Below, one piece after another: positions 40,904 to 51,998 of a stretch of 64,000 bases of DNA. The stretch is taken from contig JAIXMF010000002.1 of the NCBI GenBank assembly GCA_025201365.1, forward strand, positions 620,001 to 684,000, given 5' to 3'. The translations under genes and the position numbers were made by a program. The stretch's first letter is position 1. The number at the start of each line of letters is the position of its first letter. Origin of the DNA: Syncephalis plumigaleata. Lineage: Eukaryota; Zoopagomycota; Zoopagomycetes; Zoopagales; Piptocephalidaceae. Under the pieces are notes generated by a model. That model saw nothing but the letters and a program-made list of their open reading frames with translations. It did not search any database and was not told where the DNA came from.

Positions 40904-41403
40904 TGTAACGCGGCAATTTGTTCTGCCTGAAATAATGTTACGATAGATTCGAGAGCTCGTGTTAAGATAAGACACTATGATAAGTTGAGAGAATTGTAGA
41001 GTAGAGGGTATTGTTCGATGAGTAAGTGTGTGATAAGATAATGTCTTTATTTCGTATAAATGTAAGTACGCTTATATAGCTAGAACAGCTATGAATGTAA
41101 AGAGGTACCAGCAGTAGATGTGAGTTTGCTACAGCGCATCTTTGCCGAGTTAGTCGAAGATGTACTAGTTCGCGTAGTACTTGTTGATGAGCGGGAAGCG
41201 TAGCATGGCGAATGCTACTTTATGTTGAATCGTCGGGTGGTTGTTGATTGTTTGTGTAAGGGAATAAGAGGCGAGTGGGTGATCGTTATAGATCCTGACG
41301 TAATAATGAGCAAGTGTATCATCACGTGATCAAATCTAGGTGGAGATTCGTTAAAGTGAGGAAATCCTACTGTGAAGTTCATATATCACAGGAGCGGATT
41401 ACA
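40904..41403 (-). repeat. 3' LTR of the Ty3/Gypsy element
   Basis: 500-bp long terminal repeat, TG...CA bounded, matching the repeat at 46064-46563 at every position I compared. It is the downstream LTR because the element lies on the minus strand. Confidence 0.95.
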
Positions 41404-41431
41404 TGCCCACACAAATGCTTGACGTCCTCGT

Positions 41432-44400
41432 TCAAGGTTGTCGGAAGCGGCGAAGAGTGGATCGTAGTTGGCTTGGTCGAACGACAGGTATCATTTGTTG
41501 ATATTCATGGTATGGTTTAAGTCTGTCGACGTGAACGATATCGAAACTCTTACCATCCGATATAAGGTAAGTACCGGGGTGTAATAAACGAATGACTTTG
41601 TACGGTCCATCATACAAGTTAGTGAATTTTCCGCTTGATGATACCATTACCCGTAATAAAACCTCCGTATTTGGTTGGAAACAACGCGGTTGAACCGTTC
41701 GATCGTAGCGAATCTTCTGACGTATCTGTGCAATTCGCGTATTCTCTTGAGCCACTTCTCGTAACTTCGGTAATTCGTACTGAATACTTTGTAAACGTTG
41801 ATCGTATTCTTCTTCGGAATCAATGAAACTATTCGTATTCAACGTCCATACGGCTGGCGTTTTGAGCTCATAACCATATAACAAACGACTAGGGGTAAAC
41901 TTCGTAGTAGCACTGGTCATGGTGCGAATAACTAATAAAGCTTTCCATAAATCTACATCCCATTGTAAATTGCCGTTAGTCAGTTTAGTTAGCTGCTCTT
42001 TCAATGTTCGATTTAACCGTTCTACTTGACCGTTCGCTTGTGGTCTATAAGCAGTAGTAGGAGTATGATGAATTCGTAAATACTTAAAGAATTCGTCGGC
42101 TAAATCGCTCGTGAAGTCGGCTCCTCGATCCGTAATTAACTGCTGAGGAACTCCATATAATGCCACAACATCTTCTATTAAGAAACGAATGACCGTCTCA
42201 GTGGTGATATCCTTGGTAGCTCGAGCAATAGGCCATTTAGTGAAGTAATCGATAGCTGTCAAAATATATCGATTTCCGGACGTACTGATGGGGTTGATGG
42301 GTCCCATGGCGTCAACACCGAGTAATTGGAATGGATAACTGGAACTGATAGAATGCATAGGTTCCTGTCTAATGGCCGTCGTAGTATTTCGCTGGCATAT
42401 GTCGCATCCTTTTACTACTTCTTTTACGACTTTGTATAAACCGATGCCGGCGAAACGCATCTTCACACGTCTCCATGTATTTTCGACACCATTGTGTCCT
42501 TCATTATGTATCCTTGCTATTTCCTCGTGAGCGTTATGCTCATGTAATACTTCCTTTTCCTGATTATTGATAACTTGATACAATTTATCATCGATAACCT
42601 TATACTTTCCTGCGATTCTTCGTAATCGCTTTCTTTCAATTTCCGTGGCGTTGGTAGGATAAACCATTTTGTTCACATAATCTCTAGTTGCGTTATAGAA
42701 GGTGAATGACATTGCAAATAGGTCGGTATGCTGTTCCATAGGAGCTGGATGTCGAGATAAGTAATCGGCCGGGTTTATCTTGCCTTTGATATGTTCGATG
42801 TCGTAGTCGTATTCCATTAACATTAATTGCCATCTAGCTAGTCGACCGGTGAGTGGTTCTGACGTCTTAAATAGCGATAATAATGCAGAGTGATCCGTTT
42901 TAAGCGTAAATCGTCGTCCATACAGGTAATGTCGGTAATGCTTTACAGCCCATATGACGGCGAGTCCTTCCAGGTGGGTGGGACTATAATTGCTTTCGGC
43001 TTGACTGAGACTACGGCTAGCATAAGAAATAACAACTTCCTTCTGATCGGGCAACCGTTGTTGTAGGATTGCTCCAAGACCTCGTCCCGATCCATCTGTA
43101 GTTAAAACAAAAGGTAAGTTCCAATCTACAAATCGTAGAATAGGAGCGTTAGCGAGTTTGGATTGCAACGTTTGAAACGCTTCTATTTGATCTTCATCCC
43201 ACGACCAGGGCGTATTCTTCCGCATTAATCGATTTAATGGGCGTGATATAGTTGCAAAGCCTTCCACAAAGCGTCTATAATAACTGGCCAGGCCCATAAA
43301 TGATCTAACTGTCGTAACGTTAGTAGGTGGTTTAGCATGTATAATCGCATCGATTTTGTTCGGGGTGGGTGCTAAACCATGAGCTGAAATTCGAAAACCT
43401 AAATATTCCAGTCCTTGATATCCAATGAAGCATTTAGTGGGAGATAGTTGAAGTTGAACTTTTCGGCATCTATCGAGGGCTATTTTTAGATGTTCCAAAT
43501 GTTCGTCCACATTCTTCGAGTAAATAATAATGTCGTCAATGAATACTATGACGTTTTTCCATAACATATCAGCGAACACACGTTCCATCATGCGTTGATA
43601 CGTTCCGGGGGCGTTTGCTAGACCGAAAGGCATAACTAAAAAGCGGTAAAAGCCTCCACCAGGAATTGCAAAAGCTGTTTTGTCGCGATCGTCTTCCGTA
43701 GCCAAAGGGACTTGCCAATATCCAGAACGCGCATCGAGTGTTGAGTAAACTGATGATCCACCTAAGGCGTCCATGATTTCGTCAATTAAAGGTAAGGGAT
43801 ACTTATCCTTTCTAGTGATTGCATTTAACTTTCGATAGTCGACACATAGACGTAGTCCACCGTTCTTCTTTTGAATGGGCACAAGTGGAGCACACCAGGG
43901 TGATTGCGCTTCTTCGATTACGCCACTTTGCTTCATCTTCTCGATTTCTTCTTTGATTTGACGTAGCATTGCTTGTGGTACACGGTAAGGTCGAATTCTT
44001 ACCGGCGAATGATCTCCTGTATCAATCGAGTGCGTTGCTGCGGTTGTACGTCCTAATTCCTCGATTTCCTCTGCGAAAACATCCTTAAAGTCGTCAACTA
44101 CCGCTTGTAACTGGGCTCTGTCGTCTTCCGGTAACGGTTGATAAGCAGTGGTTGGTGTAGTGACTGCGAGTCCAAACAGATCGTCCGGGTCCATGATATC
44201 GAGATCTGCATCGTTTCCGGAATCGCTTTGACTGTTCACGGCAGTTACTCCTTCATTTTGTACACTGAAATGTTCGAATAAGGTTTCAATGCTGGCGGTA
44301 TCCGTTGGAGGCGTGTCTGGAGCGGCAAATACGGGAGCGTCCTCTAATAGGGGGTCGATATCGTCGTACTGCTGCGTATTCATGGGAATTTCCATTGTTA

Positions 44401-45973
44401 TACCATCCTTTCGATAAATTAACTTGTTTTGAATGATATCTGGTGTAATGGAATTTCTCTTCATCCAGTCGATACCTAGAATCAGTAGATGACCTGTTCT
44501 TTCGAATACAATGATATCCGCGGGTAAAGTGAGGGGTCCAATACTTATGGGTAAGTCTTTCACCATATGCCGGGGAGTATGTCGTTGTCCATCTGCGGTG
44601 ACCAATACTCGATCAACGCGGTGTCTAGGTCGTATACCTAAGTGTGAGACCAACGCAGGGCTGATCACCGAGCTGGCAGCTCCAGTATCGATAATTGCCA
44701 TTACTTCTATACCGTTGATGATTACACGTCGTCGAGCTGAAGTGTAATTGTGACCAATTTCATCATCAAGATTGTTGGCATCCATCTCACGTCGTAAAGC
44801 TCGTGCTAACTGTTGTCTGATTGCCGGTGATTGGTAAATCAGTTGTGCAATCGAGATATTTGCTGGCGTCGAACGTAGTTGATCCTCAATCTTGTACGCA
44901 TTTCTGTCTGTCTCCAAATTTAGATTAGGAGGCATTCGTGGTTGCCGGGGAACTCTTGCAGCCACATTTCCTTCTTTCGCTGCGGGGGCTTTCCTTCGTG
45001 GTACATCCTTCGCTTGTACCGTTGGTTGCGCAACGTGTGTTGTTGGTACCGTCTGTTCTTGGATATCCATTTCCATATCGGTAGCAACGGCTTTTCTAGC
45101 GTTCTTCCTTGTAGCGGGAATAGCTATATCTCGTTCTTTCCTCTTTCCTAAGGGGAACAAATCATCTTCATTAGCATCGTTATCTAATAGATTCAGATTT
45201 TCTCCTTGTCTCTGGGGACATTCTCGGGCCATATGTCCTTTGCCTTGACAATTGTAACATCGTCTTTCGCTGAATGAACGCTCATTGTTTCGTTCCGTGG
45301 GTTTGTTCTTTTCTTGTACCATGGCTTGTATCATGTTGAGCGACATTTCTTGAAATCGCTCCATTAGACGTTCCATGCTGGTTTCGAGAGACTGACTCTT
45401 GCTTTCTTCGCTCTTGGTCCGACCAATTAACGCTGGTTGGTCGTAGGATGCCTTGATACTTGGTAAGATATCCTGCGCTTCTAAATCAAGACTTTCTTCT
45501 CGCAGTAATAACTCCTTGGCTCGTCGGTATGTATTTGGACCTTCCTTTCGAAATTCACGCTTGTACTCCGGTCGAATAGCTTGAGCTAGTAATTCCAACT
45601 TGACCTCGTCGCTTGTAATTTCCGCACGCTTGATCAGGCTATCCAATGTGGTGAGTAGCTCGTCGATGGATTCTTCTTTTCCTTGACGATACGAGAAGAG
45701 CTGCCTAGTTGCATGATGTTTATAGCCAACGGTAACATATTTACTACGGAAGGCATTCTCGAATTCTTGCCAGGTCGTAGTCACTTCTTCGATGGATTCA
45801 TACCATGCCTCGGCCGTCCCTTCTAAGCTGACTCCTGCCATTGCGATTGCTTGGTCGTCGAGCCAATTGTTTGCACGTTTGATCTTCTTGAATCGGCTCA
45901 GCCATTTCTCGGGGTCTTCACTCTTGCGTCCTCCGAAGGTAGGGGCTTCCATACATCCGATCTTGCCGTCCAT
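41432..45973 (-). CDS. Gag-Pol polyprotein of the Ty3/Gypsy element
   Basis: One frame of 1513 aa. Parts in order: Gag with a retrotransposon capsid-type region (residues 1-200) and a CCHC zinc knuckle (CYNCQGKGHMAREC, about 239-252). The aspartic protease has IIDTGAASSV near 428. Reverse transcriptase spans roughly 650-850, with FIDD near 812. RNase H has TDGSGRGLG near 959. The integrase has an HHCC zinc region (about 1147-1193) and catalytic D, D, E near 1220, 1282 and 1318. No chromodomain follows the integrase. Gag and Pol share a single frame, which many fungal Ty3 elements also do. The frame appears whole. Confidence 0.95.
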   Translation of the reverse strand: MDGKIGCMEAPTFGGRKSEDPEKWLSRFKKIKRANNWLDDQAIAMAGVSLEGTAEAWYESIEEVTTTWQEFENAFRSKYVTVGYKHHATRQLFSYRQGKEESIDELLTTLDSLIKRAEITSDEVKLELLAQAIRPEYKREFRKEGPNTYRRAKELLLREESLDLEAQDILPSIKASYDQPALIGRTKSEESKSQSLETSMERLMERFQEMSLNMIQAMVQEKNKPTERNNERSFSERRCYNCQGKGHMARECPQRQGENLNLLDNDANEDDLFPLGKRKERDIAIPATRKNARKAVATDMEMDIQEQTVPTTHVAQPTVQAKDVPRRKAPAAKEGNVAARVPRQPRMPPNLNLETDRNAYKIEDQLRSTPANISIAQLIYQSPAIRQQLARALRREMDANNLDDEIGHNYTSARRRVIINGIEVMAIIDTGAASSVISPALVSHLGIRPRHRVDRVLVTADGQRHTPRHMVKDLPISIGPLTLPADIIVFERTGHLLILGIDWMKRNSITPDIIQNKLIYRKDGITMEIPMNTQQYDDIDPLLEDAPVFAAPDTPPTDTASIETLFEHFSVQNEGVTAVNSQSDSGNDADLDIMDPDDLFGLAVTTPTTAYQPLPEDDRAQLQAVVDDFKDVFAEEIEELGRTTAATHSIDTGDHSPVRIRPYRVPQAMLRQIKEEIEKMKQSGVIEEAQSPWCAPLVPIQKKNGGLRLCVDYRKLNAITRKDKYPLPLIDEIMDALGGSSVYSTLDARSGYWQVPLATEDDRDKTAFAIPGGGFYRFLVMPFGLANAPGTYQRMMERVFADMLWKNVIVFIDDIIIYSKNVDEHLEHLKIALDRCRKVQLQLSPTKCFIGYQGLEYLGFRISAHGLAPTPNKIDAIIHAKPPTNVTTVRSFMGLASYYRRFVEGFATISRPLNRLMRKNTPWSWDEDQIEAFQTLQSKLANAPILRFVDWNLPFVLTTDGSGRGLGAILQQRLPDQKEVVISYASRSLSQAESNYSPTHLEGLAVIWAVKHYRHYLYGRRFTLKTDHSALLSLFKTSEPLTGRLARWQLMLMEYDYDIEHIKGKINPADYLSRHPAPMEQHTDLFAMSFTFYNATRDYVNKMVYPTNATEIERKRLRRIAGKYKVIDDKLYQVINNQEKEVLHEHNAHEEIARIHNEGHNGVENTWRRVKMRFAGIGLYKVVKEVVKGCDICQRNTTTAIRQEPMHSISSSYPFQLLGVDAMGPINPISTSGNRYILTAIDYFTKWPIARATKDITTETVIRFLIEDVVALYGVPQQLITDRGADFTSDLADEFFKYLRIHHTPTTAYRPQANGQVERLNRTLKEQLTKLTNGNLQWDVDLWKALLVIRTMTSATTKFTPSRLLYGYELKTPAVWTLNTNSFIDSEEEYDQRLQSIQYELPKLREVAQENTRIAQIRQKIRYDRTVQPRCFQPNTEVLLRVMVSSSGKFTNLYDGPYKVIRLLHPGTYLISDGKSFDIVHVDRLKPYHEYQQMIPVVRPSQLRSTLRRFRQP

Positions 45974-46063
45974 TGCGATACTTGATGTAGAAATGTAACT
46001 AAAATATGAAAAATAAATGTCTTAGTCTTAGCTAGAAGAACTCCCTGTAGTGAGCACCAAAAT

Positions 46064-46563
46064 TGTAACGCGGCAATTTGTTCTGCCTGAAATAATGTTA
46101 CGATAGATTCGAGAGCTCGTGTTAAGATAAGACACTATGATAAGTTGAGAGAATTGTAGAGTAGAGGGTATTGTTCGATGAGTAAGTGTGTGATAAGATA
46201 ATGTCTTTATTTCGTATAAATGTAAGTACGCTTATATAGCTAGAACAGCTATGAATGTAAAGAGGTACCAGCAGTAGATGTGAGTTTGCTACAGCGCATC
46301 TTTGCCGAGTTAGTCGAAGATGTACTAGTTCGCGTAGTACTTGTTGATGAGCGGGAAGCGTAGCATGGCGAATGCTACTTTATGTTGAATCGTCGGGTGG
46401 TTGTTGATTGTTTGTGTAAGGGAATAAGAGGCGAGTGGGTGATCGTTATAGATCCTGACGTAATAATGAGCAAGTGTATCATCACGTGATCAAATCTAGG
46501 TGGAGATTCGTTAAAGTGAGGAAATCCTACTGTGAAGTTCATATATCACAGGAGCGGATTACA
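46064..46563 (-). repeat. 5' LTR of the Ty3/Gypsy element
   Basis: Upstream LTR, same 500 bp as the other end. The internal sequence next to it reads TTTTGGTGCTCACTACAGGG on the element strand. TGGTGCTCACTACAGGG is the likely primer-binding site; I could not match it to a tRNA in this window. Confidence 0.95.
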
Positions 46564-46572
46564 TTTATCGTG

Positions 46573-46654
46573 GTCAGTGTGTCCGAGTGGTTAAGGAGTG
46601 TGACTAGAAATCACATGGGCTCTGCCCGCACAGGTTCAAATCCTGTCGCTGACG
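46573..46654 (+). tRNA. tRNA-Ser (anticodon AGA)
   Basis: An 82-nt class II tRNA. The acceptor arm is GTCAGTG with CGCTGAC, the D arm GTGTCCGAGTGGTTAAGGAG carries the A box, and the anticodon loop ACTAGAAAT has AGA. A long variable arm (TGGGCTCTGCCCGCA) is diagnostic of serine. The B box is GGTTCAAATCC. A TTTT terminator follows at once. There is no intron. The Ty3/Gypsy element ends 9 bp upstream. Confidence 0.96.
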
Positions 46655-47923: not shown

Positions 47924-49980
47924 ATGATGGCATTTGCGACGGCAACCTTCGTGGAGGTACTCGATGATTTGTCAAGGTCAGTAATAATATGGGCACGCTT
48001 ACTCCTGTGCAATTATTAAATACGACAATGTAGTCGGTTTATTATTAATGTTCCCGACGAGGAACTTGCATCTGTGGAGCGAATCTGCTTTCAAGTCGAG
48101 CAAGCACACTGGTATTACGAGGACTTTATTCGAGAGCAAAATCCGAGTCTACCTAGCTTCTCGCTTAAACAGTTTTCCGCGAAAAATATCCTTTATATGA
48201 CGCGCATCATTAGCGTACATCTATTGCTAGAGAGCATCCTTAACTCGTAGCATCTACTTTTCCGACATTGTCCATTGTTGCAGCACTGGGCGGATGAACA
48301 TGAGAAAGCGTACGGCGATTTCCTTACCTATAAATTCCGCGTACCAGTATGCGGTGCCATCATTCTCAATGAGACGCTAGACAAGTGTCTACTAGTCAAA
48401 GGCTGGACCTCAAAGGCCGGATGGGGATTTCCACGCGGCAAAATCAACAAGGATGAGTCGTATGCCAGTTGTGCCGCACGAGAGGTGAGCATTACACCAG
48501 TGGATGAATCCGTAAATGACACATTCATCATCGTTAACGGTATAGACGATCATTCCACTAATAATAATAATAATTAGGTAATGGAAGAGACCGGGTTTGA
48601 CTTGTCGCCACTAATCGACGAGGAGATATACCTGGAGCGTACCATTCGAGAGCAGCATATTCGATTGTTCATCATACCAGGTATTCCGGAGAAAACTCAG
48701 TTTAATCCGCAAACACGTAAAGAAATCAGTGTATGTTTAATCGCGTGGATCCTAGAGCGTATCGATTAATCAGTTATATTGTAAAATAGAAAATATCATG
48801 GTATAAACTGTTGGATTTGCCAACCTATCGTGTTAAACGCGATACAAATCAGAATACAAATGTAGCATCATCGACAGCGGCGGCAGCAGCAGCAGCTCAC
48901 GGTGCAAATAACAATAACAATAATCGTAATCGATTCTATATGGTGATTCCTTTTGTAAAGTAAGTATTCGTAATAATGGCTAGTAAATGATAATTTCTTA
49001 CCATTTTGTTTCACCTTCTCATTACTACCATTAGTGACTTGCGTCGATGGATTGAACGTAGGCGTCAGGGCGATGCTGCGTCCAGTGCATCTGCTTCTAG
49101 ACGTGGCTCATTAGCCTGTACCGTGACATCTAATGTCTCTAATGCAACTAGCCATGTAGATGTCGATAGTGAGCGGATACAGATAATGCAGAATAACAAG
49201 AATCGTCAAGGCGGACAGGGCAAAAAAGAGCATCGTAGAACGCGTAGTAAATATCAAAATGAGCAAACGCACATGCAGCAATTGGTGGAACAGCATGCAA
49301 CACATCCAGTTGATAGTAATGCTGCCCTACTAGAATACCTGAATAAGATGTCTAATAGTTCCACATCCAAGACCAATACTACCAATGCGTTATTCCAATT
49401 GAACGGCTTATCTGACGATGTAAACATGTCGAATCAACACTTACATCCTCATCAGCAAAGAGTATCACCGGCGATACTGCCCATTACTCATCAGATACCA
49501 ATTAATGACCAGTCTAATAATGCAGGTGATCGATTACTTGCAGCACTTCAAGGTAAACCTGTAATGGATAACGTTGCTAATTATTCGATGCCACCACCAC
49601 CACCACCACCGCCGCCATCGCAACCACAAGCATCTCCCTTAGTATCTCATGTTCCCGTAAATCTAGTAGAATCAGCACATGGCAATAATAGTAATGCCAT
49701 TGCGTACAACACACCAGTATATAATTACTCGCCAGGACATGGTCCATCTGGACAGTATTCACATGTTTACGCATCATCAGAGACATCATTACCGCAGTTA
49801 CCACCATCTCTACCGCAAAATAATTATCATGCATACGGTGTTCAATTCTCCTCTAGTAATAATGCTGTAGCTCATGGTGTTGCCACTGATGGTATTAGCA
49901 ATAATAATAGTAGTAATAATATGCCATCAGCATCAACATCGACTGCACTGGCATTGCTGGATATTCTACGTCCAAAATAA
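47924..49980 (+). CDS. mRNA-decapping enzyme Dcp2
   Basis: Catalytic subunit that removes the m7G cap in mRNA decay, with Dcp1. Six exons give 566 aa: 47924-47976, 48034-48185, 48258-48484, 48578-48730, 48790-48959 and 49035-49980. The regulatory domain reads VDDL-type [40 protein letters not shown] and [15 protein letters not shown]. The Nudix box is [20 protein letters not shown] followed by VMEETGFDL. Box B includes [20 protein letters not shown] and [18 protein letters not shown]. The long C-terminal tail is low complexity with a proline run (near 49592). The second intron starts AT and ends AC (see separate entry); all the others are GT-AG. A working enzyme is expected. Confidence 0.95.
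48186..48257 (+). other. U12-type AT-AC intron in DCP2
   Basis: 72-nt intron beginning ATATCCTTT, the exact consensus of minor-spliceosome AT-AC donors, and ending AC. The branch motif TCCTTAAC (48237-48244) lies 13 nt from the end, the usual distance. Splicing here gives FSAKIFRHCPLL, which agrees with fission yeast Dcp2; no GT-AG alternative restores that frame. The genome should therefore code for U11, U12, U4atac and U6atac snRNAs. Confidence 0.92.
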
Positions 49981-50166: not shown

Positions 50167-51174
50167 TTATAATGTGGCCAAGAATGCTTCCACCGGATCT
50201 ATTACACTTTCTGCCCGACGACTCTCCTTGCTGTATCTTCGTACACCCATCAAGGGCGGTGAATACACAATAGGTGCAGCTATCGTTGCTAGACACGCTG
50301 GCATAGGAGTGGTATGTCGCTTAGATTCATTTGTCCTGGGGATATGTGGAATGGTAGCAGTAGCAGCAGTAGTAGCAGCAGTAGTAGCAGGAGCAGCAAC
50401 AGTAGCAGGAGCAGCAACAGCAGGAGGTGGTAGTTTTTTAGTAGTATCAATCTCATCATTACTCGTAGAATGAGGTTTGTCGTATGTAAAATGTTTATCT
50501 TGCTTAACGACCGGGTTTGATCGAATGTAATTCTTCTCGGCATATCCGAGGCGACTGATCATCTCGGTTAATGATTGTTTAAGTTGCAGTTTGGCCGCAC
50601 TGATTAGCTCTTTCCTTGCTCCACGATAAATCGCTAAGCGTTGTAGTAGATCGTTGCACTCGGTATTGGAGTTGATACGTTGACATAGACGACGTACGCG
50701 GTAACAGAAACTTTCTACGGATTCATTCGAATCTTGCACGGTATTCAAAAGTTCCTCGTCCCATATCTCAATCCAGTAGAGTGTACAGAAGCGCAATCGG
50801 AACTGTTCCACGAATCCTGGCTCATCTAAGGATCCCGAACACCAAACCAATGTGGTTGACTGATTATCACATAGCTGAGTCCATGCATAGGCCGTTTCTT
50901 CTAGGTAGAAAAAGACGTAGTATAGCTTCGTAGCGTCGTTCCAACGATTAAAGCGTGCCACTCGCTCGTATGCCTCTAGCCAATTCATTGGATCCTCGTC
51001 AGGTCTACCGTGAAATACGGGTGGCGAAACAAAATTGGGCAGACTACCACCTAGTTTATTCATATCTACTGTTGGCCATTGCAATACGCTATTGTATCCA
51101 TTGACTCTAGCGGGACTAGCACACTCGGTGGTTGCTGCCATTATAGTTGCAGTTGCTTCGGTAAGGTTATCCAT
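50167..51174 (-). CDS. Lone retroelement-type Gag gene
   Basis: An intact 335-aa frame starting MDNLTEATATIMAATTE. Residues 55-215 or so look like a Ty3-type retrotransposon Gag region: VFHGRPDEDPMNWLEAYERV, FYLEETAYAWTQL, FVEQFRLRFCTL and a SVESFCYRVRRLCQRI helix. An Ala/Thr/Pro-rich stretch follows, and no zinc knuckle, protease or polymerase follows. I see no LTR around it, and it differs from the Gag of the Ty3/Gypsy copy nearby. It appears whole. It is either a fossil Gag left after loss of the rest, or a domesticated capsid-type gene; I cannot decide from this window. Confidence 0.75.
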   Translation of the reverse strand: MDNLTEATATIMAATTECASPARVNGYNSVLQWPTVDMNKLGGSLPNFVSPPVFHGRPDEDPMNWLEAYERVARFNRWNDATKLYYVFFYLEETAYAWTQLCDNQSTTLVWCSGSLDEPGFVEQFRLRFCTLYWIEIWDEELLNTVQDSNESVESFCYRVRRLCQRINSNTECNDLLQRLAIYRGARKELISAAKLQLKQSLTEMISRLGYAEKNYIRSNPVVKQDKHFTYDKPHSTSNDEIDTTKKLPPPAVAAPATVAAPATTAATTAATATIPHIPRTNESKRHTTPMPACLATIAAPIVYSPPLMGVRRYSKESRRAESVIDPVEAFLATL

Positions 51175-51998
51175 GTTGCTTAATGATAATATTCTGCACG
51201 ATCTAGTATGCACTATCAACCTTAGTAATTCAAGAAAGAATGGAGGTGGAAACCGATGAGATACCAATGAGGAAATGCTTGTACTTGTAATTCAAAAATA
51301 GGTATTGAAAATGGCAAGGGAGCACAACAAGTACTACGATAACGTGCTAAATTTATTCGCAATGCTTATTCGACTGGTATCACAAAATGATGCTTCCCAT
51401 AGTGCCCATCCCTACATGCACTATAATGCAACAGAATGCAGTGTGTCTATCATTCTTCTATACACACACAAATAGATAGATACACAGAGAGATAGATAGC
51501 TTTCAATGGGATAGAACTGTGAAATTAGTGGTAAGCATATTTTTATGTAGTAATTATAAATAAAACTAACATTATCATCATAGTGTAGCGAGTAGTAGAT
51601 TCTAGTTTATATTGATTTCTTTTAATGCATTACTGCAACATACTAGTAGTGAATACGTAATTAGTCAAAAGGGGAATGATATACTACCGATAATTATAAA
51701 ATGGAATTGCTAAATTGCTAATAGTGTGCATTATCAATCTGCAGGGGGAGGGAAGAGGAAGGAGGAGAATAACCAAATCTCAATGTAAGTTCCCAATCTT
51801 AGCATTATTTAATGCATTGGCTCATACGTACAATAAAGACACAATCGTTAACACGTATTGCATGTTGCAATATTCTAGTAGCAGCAAGTTTGCATGTAGA
51901 CTACAGTGATTATTGTTCTGTGAACATGTATAATAAGCAAGCATTATGTTTGATTATGATTACAACAGTGTTAATGATTTATTCGATCATTAATCAAT
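51175..51998. other. Intergenic region
   Basis: About 820 bp, AT-rich, with a GATAGATAG-type simple repeat near 51473-51499. No LTR or gene is recognisable. It separates the lone Gag gene from the oxidoreductase. Confidence 0.5.

What the first reader, a model, noticed from the sequence alone, without database searches (positions are those of the whole stretch)
48186..48257. A bona fide U12-type AT-AC intron in the decapping enzyme gene
The second DCP2 intron starts ATATCCTTT and ends AC, with a TCCTTAAC branch motif 13 nt upstream of the end. Removing it gives FSAKIFRHCPLL, matching fission yeast Dcp2; without it the frame fails. AT-AC introns are very rare in fungi and lost in most lineages, so this one points to a retained minor spliceosome in an early-diverging fungus, and to possible control of mRNA decay by it.
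Basis: partly seen in the sequence, partly recalled or inferred. Interest (0 to 1): 0.8.

Follow-up and report, generated by a model that had tools for sequence, protein, structure and literature searches.

The report
Minor-spliceosome intron in fungal decapping gene
The gene for the mRNA-decapping enzyme Dcp2 in this parasitic fungus contains a rare AT-AC intron of the kind removed by the second, "minor" splicing machine, and traces of what looks like the same intron sit as annotation errors in the Dcp2 proteins of other early-branching fungi.

Summary
The intron is real as far as sequence can show. Window 48186-48257 starts ATATCCTTT, carries TCCTTAAC and ends AC; removing it gives a Dcp2 that aligns without a gap to solved S. 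pombe Dcp2. The motif pair occurs once in the window and in 0 of 100 shuffles. The species is Syncephalis plumigaleata: its deposited Dcp2, P0132, is reproduced letter for letter from the window. The genome holds U11 (53.7 bits, cut-off 39), a borderline U6atac (33.7, cut-off 33), a U11/U12-25K gene and seven further AT-AC candidates, four confirmed by homology across the junction. U12 and U4atac RNAs were not found. New: of 175 Dcp2 proteins listed by two searches, ten read Y/N-I-L at this codon, the translation of ATATCCTT kept as exon, and eleven lack the segment; all 21 fall among 69 from Syncephalis, Glomero-, Mortierello- and Mucoromycotina, none among 106 others. So the intron is probably ancestral to these groups and often mis-annotated; their DNA was not read. 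P0132 itself uses a 36-nt GT-AG intron, which I judge an artefact. Control of mRNA decay is unsupported.

The parts
47924..47976 (+). Dcp2 exon 1 (deposited model starts at the second ATG, 47927)
47977..48033 (+). Dcp2 intron 1, GT-AG (GTCAGT..TAG), 57 nt
48034..48185 (+). Dcp2 exon 2 (box A domain, ends ..FSAK plus the first base of Ile)
48186..48257 (+). U12-type AT-AC intron, 72 nt, phase 1
   Evidence: same site marked in Dcp2 proteins of other fungi
48186..48194 (+). 5' splice site ATATCCTTT (minor-intron consensus RTATCCTTT, recalled; RTATCCTT in PMC2846911)
48237..48244 (+). branch-point motif TCCTTAAC
48256..48257 (+). 3' splice site AC, 13 nt after the branch motif
48248..48250 (+). 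in-frame TAG met if the intron is retained (89-aa product, no NUDIX domain)
48215..48250 (+). 36-nt GT-AG intron of the deposited S. plumigaleata protein P0132; judged an annotation artefact
   Evidence: P0132 reproduced exactly with this intron and with reading into intron 5
48215..48283 (+). second in-frame GT-AG alternative (69 nt, GTACAT..TTGCAG); replaces IFRHCPLLQ by [10 protein letters not shown]
   Evidence: box A 107.4 vs 125.5 bits
48258..48484 (+). Dcp2 exon 3 (end of box A, start of NUDIX)
48485..48577 (+). Dcp2 intron 3, GT-AG, 93 nt
48578..48730 (+). Dcp2 exon 4 (NUDIX)
48731..48789 (+). Dcp2 intron 4, GT-AG, 59 nt
48790..48959 (+). Dcp2 exon 5
48960..49034 (+). Dcp2 intron 5, GT-AG, 75 nt
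49035..49980 (+). Dcp2 exon 6 with stop codon ending at 49980 (566-aa product)

Best explanation
Window 48186-48257 is a U12-type AT-AC intron in the DCP2 gene of Syncephalis plumigaleata. U11 RNA (and later U6atac) recognises ATATCCTTT, the U12 particle recognises TCCTTAAC, and the minor spliceosome joins base 48185 to base 48258 in phase 1, giving ..FSAK-I-FRHCPLL... If the intron is kept, translation stops after 89 residues, so active Dcp2 needs minor splicing. Shown by sequence: the motifs, the restored conserved protein, U11 and U6atac genes, a 25K protein gene, other AT-AC introns. Inferred: that U12 and U4atac exist but were missed; the splicing itself; and that the intron was inherited from the common ancestor of Zoopagales and Mucoromycota, where gene models that want GT-AG left Y/N-I-L scars or deletions.
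For: Motif pair once in the window, 0 of 100 shuffles. Spliced protein gap-free with S. pombe Dcp2 chains, E about 1e-88; S. fuscata Dcp2 reads [15 protein letters not shown] exactly. Box A 125.5 bits spliced vs 107.4 with the 69-nt GT-AG alternative. A second copy on contig C187 has the intron identical, while the four length changes in Dcp2 exons are 3 nt each. U11 53.7 bits (cut-off 39), U6atac 33.7 (cut-off 33). PF18036 34.4 bits (cut-off 22.8) and a solved U11/U12-25K chain at E 4.1e-9. Genome pattern TATCCTTN{20,50}TCCTTRAC: 31 hits vs 8 for the reversed pattern; ATATCCTTN{20,50}TCCTTAAC 12 vs 3. AT-AC junctions agree with homologues in XDH, AIP1, a DHHC and a zf-HIT protein; the deposited zf-HIT protein P0176 of this species is identical to the AT-AC-spliced reading across the junction. 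Scars: ten proteins with [YN]IL right after FS[AE][KR]; six Y, all in groups whose normal members have Phe there (35 of 35), four N, all in groups whose normal members have mostly Ile (12 of 13), as a phase-1 ATATCCTT demands. With eleven gapped models, 21 of 69 in the four groups vs 0 of 106 elsewhere, Fisher p 4e-10.
Against: No RNA reads. U12 and U4atac RNAs not found by Rfam model or motif searches. U6atac is barely over its cut-off. The species' own deposited Dcp2 model uses a 36-nt GT-AG intron instead, although the same annotation carries an AT-AC-type junction in the zf-HIT gene, so its pipeline could represent one. A scar predicted beforehand for a second gene (zf-HIT) was seen in 0 of 22 homologues. 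Scars are protein evidence; no DNA of the other species was read. 48 of the 69 related proteins look normal, which may mean a correctly annotated intron or none. Proteins of related species are not independent.
Confidence: 0.93

Rival explanations
1. The major spliceosome removes a 36-nt GT-AG intron (48215-48250), as in the deposited protein P0132; [13 protein letters not shown] is then a species-specific stretch in box A.
For: It is the deposited model, reproduced exactly from the window, and keeps the frame. The same annotation has an AT-AC-type junction in another gene, so AT-AC was not ruled out by the pipeline.
Against: Puts 13 residues in place of one at a site where S. fuscata and S. 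pombe have none. Donor GTACAT lacks the G at +5 that the four other GT-AG introns of Dcp2 have, and 36 nt is shorter than those introns (57-93 nt). The same model runs into intron 5 and stops (..FVK), so it is unreliable. It leaves the U12 motifs and the scars in other fungi unexplained.
Confidence: 0.04
2. The major spliceosome uses GTACAT (48215) and TTGCAG (48283), 69 nt, replacing IFRHCPLLQ by [10 protein letters not shown]; possibly as a minor isoform competing with U12 splicing.
For: In frame.
Against: Loses the conserved HCPLL segment; box A score falls by 18 bits. Donor lacks G at +5.
Confidence: 0.03
3. The intron is U12-type but arose separately in Syncephalis, and the scars in other fungi are unrelated annotation noise.
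For: No DNA from the other species was read; 48 of 69 related proteins look normal; the scar idea failed for a second gene (0 of 22).
Against: Ten scars sit at the same codon and phase with the first base expected from the local residue; 0 of 106 proteins outside the four groups show one.
Confidence: 0.08

Closest known systems
Minor (U12-type) introns of Rhizophagus irregularis, 205 predicted, with U11, U12, U4atac and U6atac (PMC10639083; section 34 read, passages)
   Same: Same splice-site class and machinery, fungal; one R. irregularis Dcp2 entry (P0080) is among the gapped models here
   Different: Zoopagales, not Glomeromycotina; in this genome U12 and U4atac RNAs were not found; of the ten candidates I kept from the strict pattern eight begin AT and two GT
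U12 introns of Rhizopus oryzae and Phycomyces blakesleeanus (PMC2846911, passages seen)
   Same: Same intron class in Mucorales; AT-AC members in both
   Different: No DCP2 intron is named in the passages seen; Rhizopus and Phycomyces Dcp2 models show a gap at this place here (P0129, P0130, P0139)
Minor introns of Basidiobolus meristosporus, 249 predicted (PMC10639083, passages seen)
   Same: Zoopagomycota with minor introns
   Different: Another lineage; Dcp2 of B. ranarum (P0015) looks normal, so the DCP2 intron is undecided there

Membership tests
U12-type (minor) AT-AC intron | 5' splice site RTATCCTTT | tested here: met
   9 of 9 positions, 48186-48194
U12-type (minor) AT-AC intron | branch motif TCCTTAAC shortly before the 3' end | tested here: met
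   48237-48244, ends 13 nt before the intron end
U12-type (minor) AT-AC intron | AT-AC termini with exons that join into the conserved protein | tested here: met
   gap-free with S. pombe Dcp2, identical to S. fuscata at the junction
U12-type (minor) AT-AC intron | spliced at the predicted junction in RNA | not testable with these tools
   no RNA reads; the deposited protein model disagrees
Minor spliceosome in the same genome | U11 snRNA | tested here: met
   53.7 bits, cut-off 39, C329; the whole-genome search alone gave 35.7, below cut-off
Minor spliceosome in the same genome | U6atac snRNA | tested here: met
   33.7 bits, cut-off 33, so borderline; C1, with AAAGGAGAGA and CAAGGACGG
Minor spliceosome in the same genome | U12 snRNA | tested here: inconclusive
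   0 hits by model; two motif searches gave only hits at or below background; no control genome rang
Minor spliceosome in the same genome | U4atac snRNA | tested here: inconclusive
   0 hits by model and by a pattern complementary to this U6atac; no control rang
Minor spliceosome in the same genome | U11/U12-25K (SNRNP25) protein | tested here: met
   PF18036 34.4 bits, cut-off 22.8, plus a neighbouring exon at 20.1 bits; joined protein vs PDB 8r7n_B E 4.1e-9
Minor spliceosome in the same genome | U11-48K protein (CHHC finger) | tested here: inconclusive
   best 20.0 bits, cut-off 21.1; the family also rang in 2 of 14 control genomes, prokaryotes
Minor spliceosome in the same genome | several minor introns in other genes | tested here: met
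   8 distinct AT-AC candidates including Dcp2: 5 agree with homologues across the junction, 1 weakly (below Pfam's cut-off), 2 rest on open frame only

The most novel reading that the evidence does not exclude
The DCP2 AT-AC intron has been held since the common ancestor of Zoopagomycota and Mucoromycota because it makes decapping capacity depend on the minor spliceosome: slow or reduced minor splicing, or use of the overlapping in-frame GT-AG sites, lowers or alters Dcp2 and so slows mRNA decay globally.
Probability: 0.08. Interest if true: 0.75.

Novelty: new member of a known kind. Interest (0 to 1): 0.45.

Why it matters
It places minor splicing in a mycoparasitic Zoopagales lineage and points to one AT-AC intron kept in a core RNA-decay gene across two fungal phyla. 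It also shows that 21 of 69 public Dcp2 models seen from these fungi are damaged in box A, ten of them with a readable peptide scar, which may help find hidden AT-AC introns from protein data (it worked for DCP2, not for a second gene tried). The authors of PMC10639083 name unannotated minor introns as a possible bias and think it limited (passage); DCP2 is a concrete case.

Tried and rejected
U12 snRNA: Rfam model over the genome, 0 hits, with no control ringing. A 20-mer of the U12 branch-binding region (recalled) with 3 mismatches gave 16 hits against 25 for the reversed pattern; Rfam found no U12 in the stretches around 12 of the 16, the other 4 were not scanned. AGTAAGGA plus an Sm-like site gave 2 hits against 3 for the control. 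U4atac: model 0 hits; a pattern complementary to this genome's U6atac 0 hits.

snRNA promoter idea: U11 and U6atac share TCCCATAATWTGATCAT upstream. It is exact only at these two places, by construction; with up to 3 mismatches it is at background (342 vs 386 reversed), and Rfam found nothing in 20 further loci scanned.

U11-48K: PF05253 hits all below cut-off. Not claimed.

Second-gene scar: I wrote down beforehand that zf-HIT homologues should show CGYP; 0 of 22 do. The scar idea is therefore shown for DCP2 only.

Candidates set aside by my judgement after as coding repeats or chance: L065, L066, L067, L077, L079, L084, L085, L088, L089, L090. GT-starting candidates L068 and L082 were left open. 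The regex also flagged P0042, which is ordinary sequence variation, and that missed P0063 because of its long N-terminus; one search shows both ungapped there, one search confirms P0063.

Structure prediction was not used.

Full report
WHAT IS THERE. The DCP2 gene runs from 47924 to 49980 on the + strand in six exons. Introns 1, 3, 4 and 5 are GT-AG (57, 93, 59, 75 nt). Intron 2, 48186-48257, is 72 nt, begins ATATCCTTT, carries TCCTTAAC at 48237-48244 and ends AC. The pair of motifs occurs once in the window and in 0 of 100 shuffles. Spliced, the protein aligns without a gap across the junction to solved S. pombe Dcp2 chains (E about 1e-88) and equals S. fuscata Dcp2 there. Pfam finds Dcp2 box A and NUDIX.

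SPECIES. The deposited Dcp2 of Syncephalis plumigaleata (P0132) lies on a contig of 2,349,014 bases, the length of window contig C112, and all its 263 residues are reproduced from the window. A second protein, P0176, lies on 372,952 bases, the length of C113. A second copy of the locus on the small contig C187 has the intron unchanged, while the four length changes in Dcp2 exons are 3 nt each.

ALTERNATIVES. Retention gives a stop after 89 residues. Two GT-AG readings keep the frame. One, 48215-48250, is the deposited model, so 'without it the frame fails' needs that correction. I judge the deposited model wrong: it puts 13 residues in place of one at a conserved site, its donor lacks G at +5, its intron is only 36 nt, and the same model reads into intron 5 and stops. 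Against my judgement: the same annotation shows an AT-AC-type junction in another gene, so the pipeline could represent one. The other reading costs 18 bits of box A score.

MACHINERY. The whole-genome U11 search gave 35.7 bits, below cut-off. Scanning that locus gave 53.7 bits against a cut-off of 39, with the 5' end AUAAAGGGG and an AAUUUUUUGG stretch at the Sm site. U6atac scored 33.7 against 33, borderline, and keeps AAAGGAGAGA and CAAGGACGG. Both have a shared 17-nt element 49 nt (U6atac) and 58 nt (U11) before the modelled RNA start, a possible snRNA promoter element, though with mismatches allowed it is at background. A U11/U12-25K gene matches in two neighbouring exons. U12 and U4atac RNAs were not found. 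U11-48K is undecided. PMC10639083 calls minor introns present at three or more called minor introns, two or more minor snRNAs and a limited minor fraction (passage); the first two are met here, the third was not computed.

OTHER INTRONS. TATCCTTN{20,50}TCCTTRAC gives 31 hits, 8 for the reversed pattern. I processed 23 of the 31. Eight distinct loci are AT-AC candidates: Dcp2, xanthine dehydrogenase, AIP1, a DHHC protein and a zf-HIT protein, a CRM1-C-like protein below Pfam's cut-off, and two without Pfam match. Two more begin GTATCCTTT and are unconfirmed. The deposited zf-HIT protein P0176 is identical to the AT-AC-spliced reading across the junction; no GT lies at that 5' border.

SCARS IN OTHER FUNGI. 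Of 175 Dcp2 proteins returned by two searches (each listing only its best 120 of 1849 and 1360), ten read Y-I-L or N-I-L immediately after FSAK, FSAR or FSEK: Funneliformis, Mortierella antarctica, two Actinomortierella, Acaulospora, Entrophospora (Y); Lichtheimia ornata, Cokeromyces, Radiomyces and S. plumigaleata itself (N). Y or N is what [T/A]AT gives and I-L is what ATC-CTT gives: a phase-1 base plus ATATCCTT. The six Y are in Mortierellomycotina and Glomeromycotina, whose normal members have Phe next (33 of 33 and 2 of 2); the four N are in Mucoromycotina and Syncephalis, whose normal members have Ile (11 of 12, the exception being Jimgerdemannia, and 1 of 1). GT instead of AT would have given Cys or Ser. 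Radiomyces also shows I-L-N before the join, a possible reading of ATCCTTAAC. Eleven further models lack the segment and resume at or near HCPLL: S. pseudoplumigaleata, R. irregularis, Diversispora, Parasitella, Mucor saturninus, two Rhizopus, Phycomyces, Choanephora, Blakeslea, Circinella. In total 21 of 69 in the four groups, against 0 of 106 in Dikarya, chytrids, Kickxello/Dimargaritomycotina, Basidiobolus, Calcarisporiella and unnamed sources (Fisher p 4e-10; the script listed one chytrid, P0063, as other, but searches show it intact). Group labels are mine from the printed names, and related proteins are not independent. R. irregularis, Phycomyces and Choanephora cucurbitarum each have one normal and one broken entry, as expected if the intron exists and only some pipelines handle it. 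This is protein evidence; the DNA was not read. The same idea, predicted beforehand for zf-HIT, failed (0 of 22).

WHAT IS KNOWN. Minor introns are in print for Rhizophagus, Basidiobolus, Rhizopus and Phycomyces. I found no paper on minor introns in Syncephalis or in fungal DCP2 by these searches, judged from listings: 'Syncephalis' with 'minor spliceosome'/'U12', any two (328 papers, 10 listed, none of the ten with Syncephalis); 'DCP2'+'minor intron' (1, a review); 'decapping'+'U12-type intron' (13, 10 listed); 'Syncephalis'+'introns' (1, on secondary metabolism); 'Zoopagomycota'+'minor spliceosome' (2). 'Syncephalis' does not occur in the main text of PMC10639083; its supplement and database were not seen.

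FUNCTION. By sequence, splicing is required for active Dcp2. Control of mRNA decay through it remains an idea.

Noticed in passing
window 40904-46363 (- strand ORF 41432-46021): Ty3/gypsy-type retroelement (by eye) with two identical 300-nt terminal repeats, about 210 bp from a tRNA gene (46573-46654). The second copy of the locus on contig C187 lacks it, so the insertion looks recent and present in one copy only.
   Followed up: partly
G000 C112/C187, C61/C223, C113/C333, C112/C344: Several loci occur twice with no or slight differences: the assembly seems to hold two haplotypes in part.
   Followed up: partly
L013 and L014, upstream of U6atac and U11: Shared element TCCCATAATWTGATCAT 49 and 58 nt before the modelled RNA starts: possible common promoter element for snRNA genes.
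   Followed up: partly
L014 1501-1698: This U11 carries an insertion of about 70 nt near its 5' side; the whole-genome search matched only the part behind it and scored below cut-off.
   Followed up: no
deposited Dcp2 proteins P0002, P0052, P0080, P0127-P0130, P0132, P0139, P0143, P0151, P0162: Public gene models of Dcp2 damaged in box A; the Rhizopus arrhizus and R. microsporus clusters stand for 16 member sequences each.
   Followed up: yes
window 50167-51291 (-): 374-aa ORF resembling a retrotransposon Gag (by eye).
   Followed up: no
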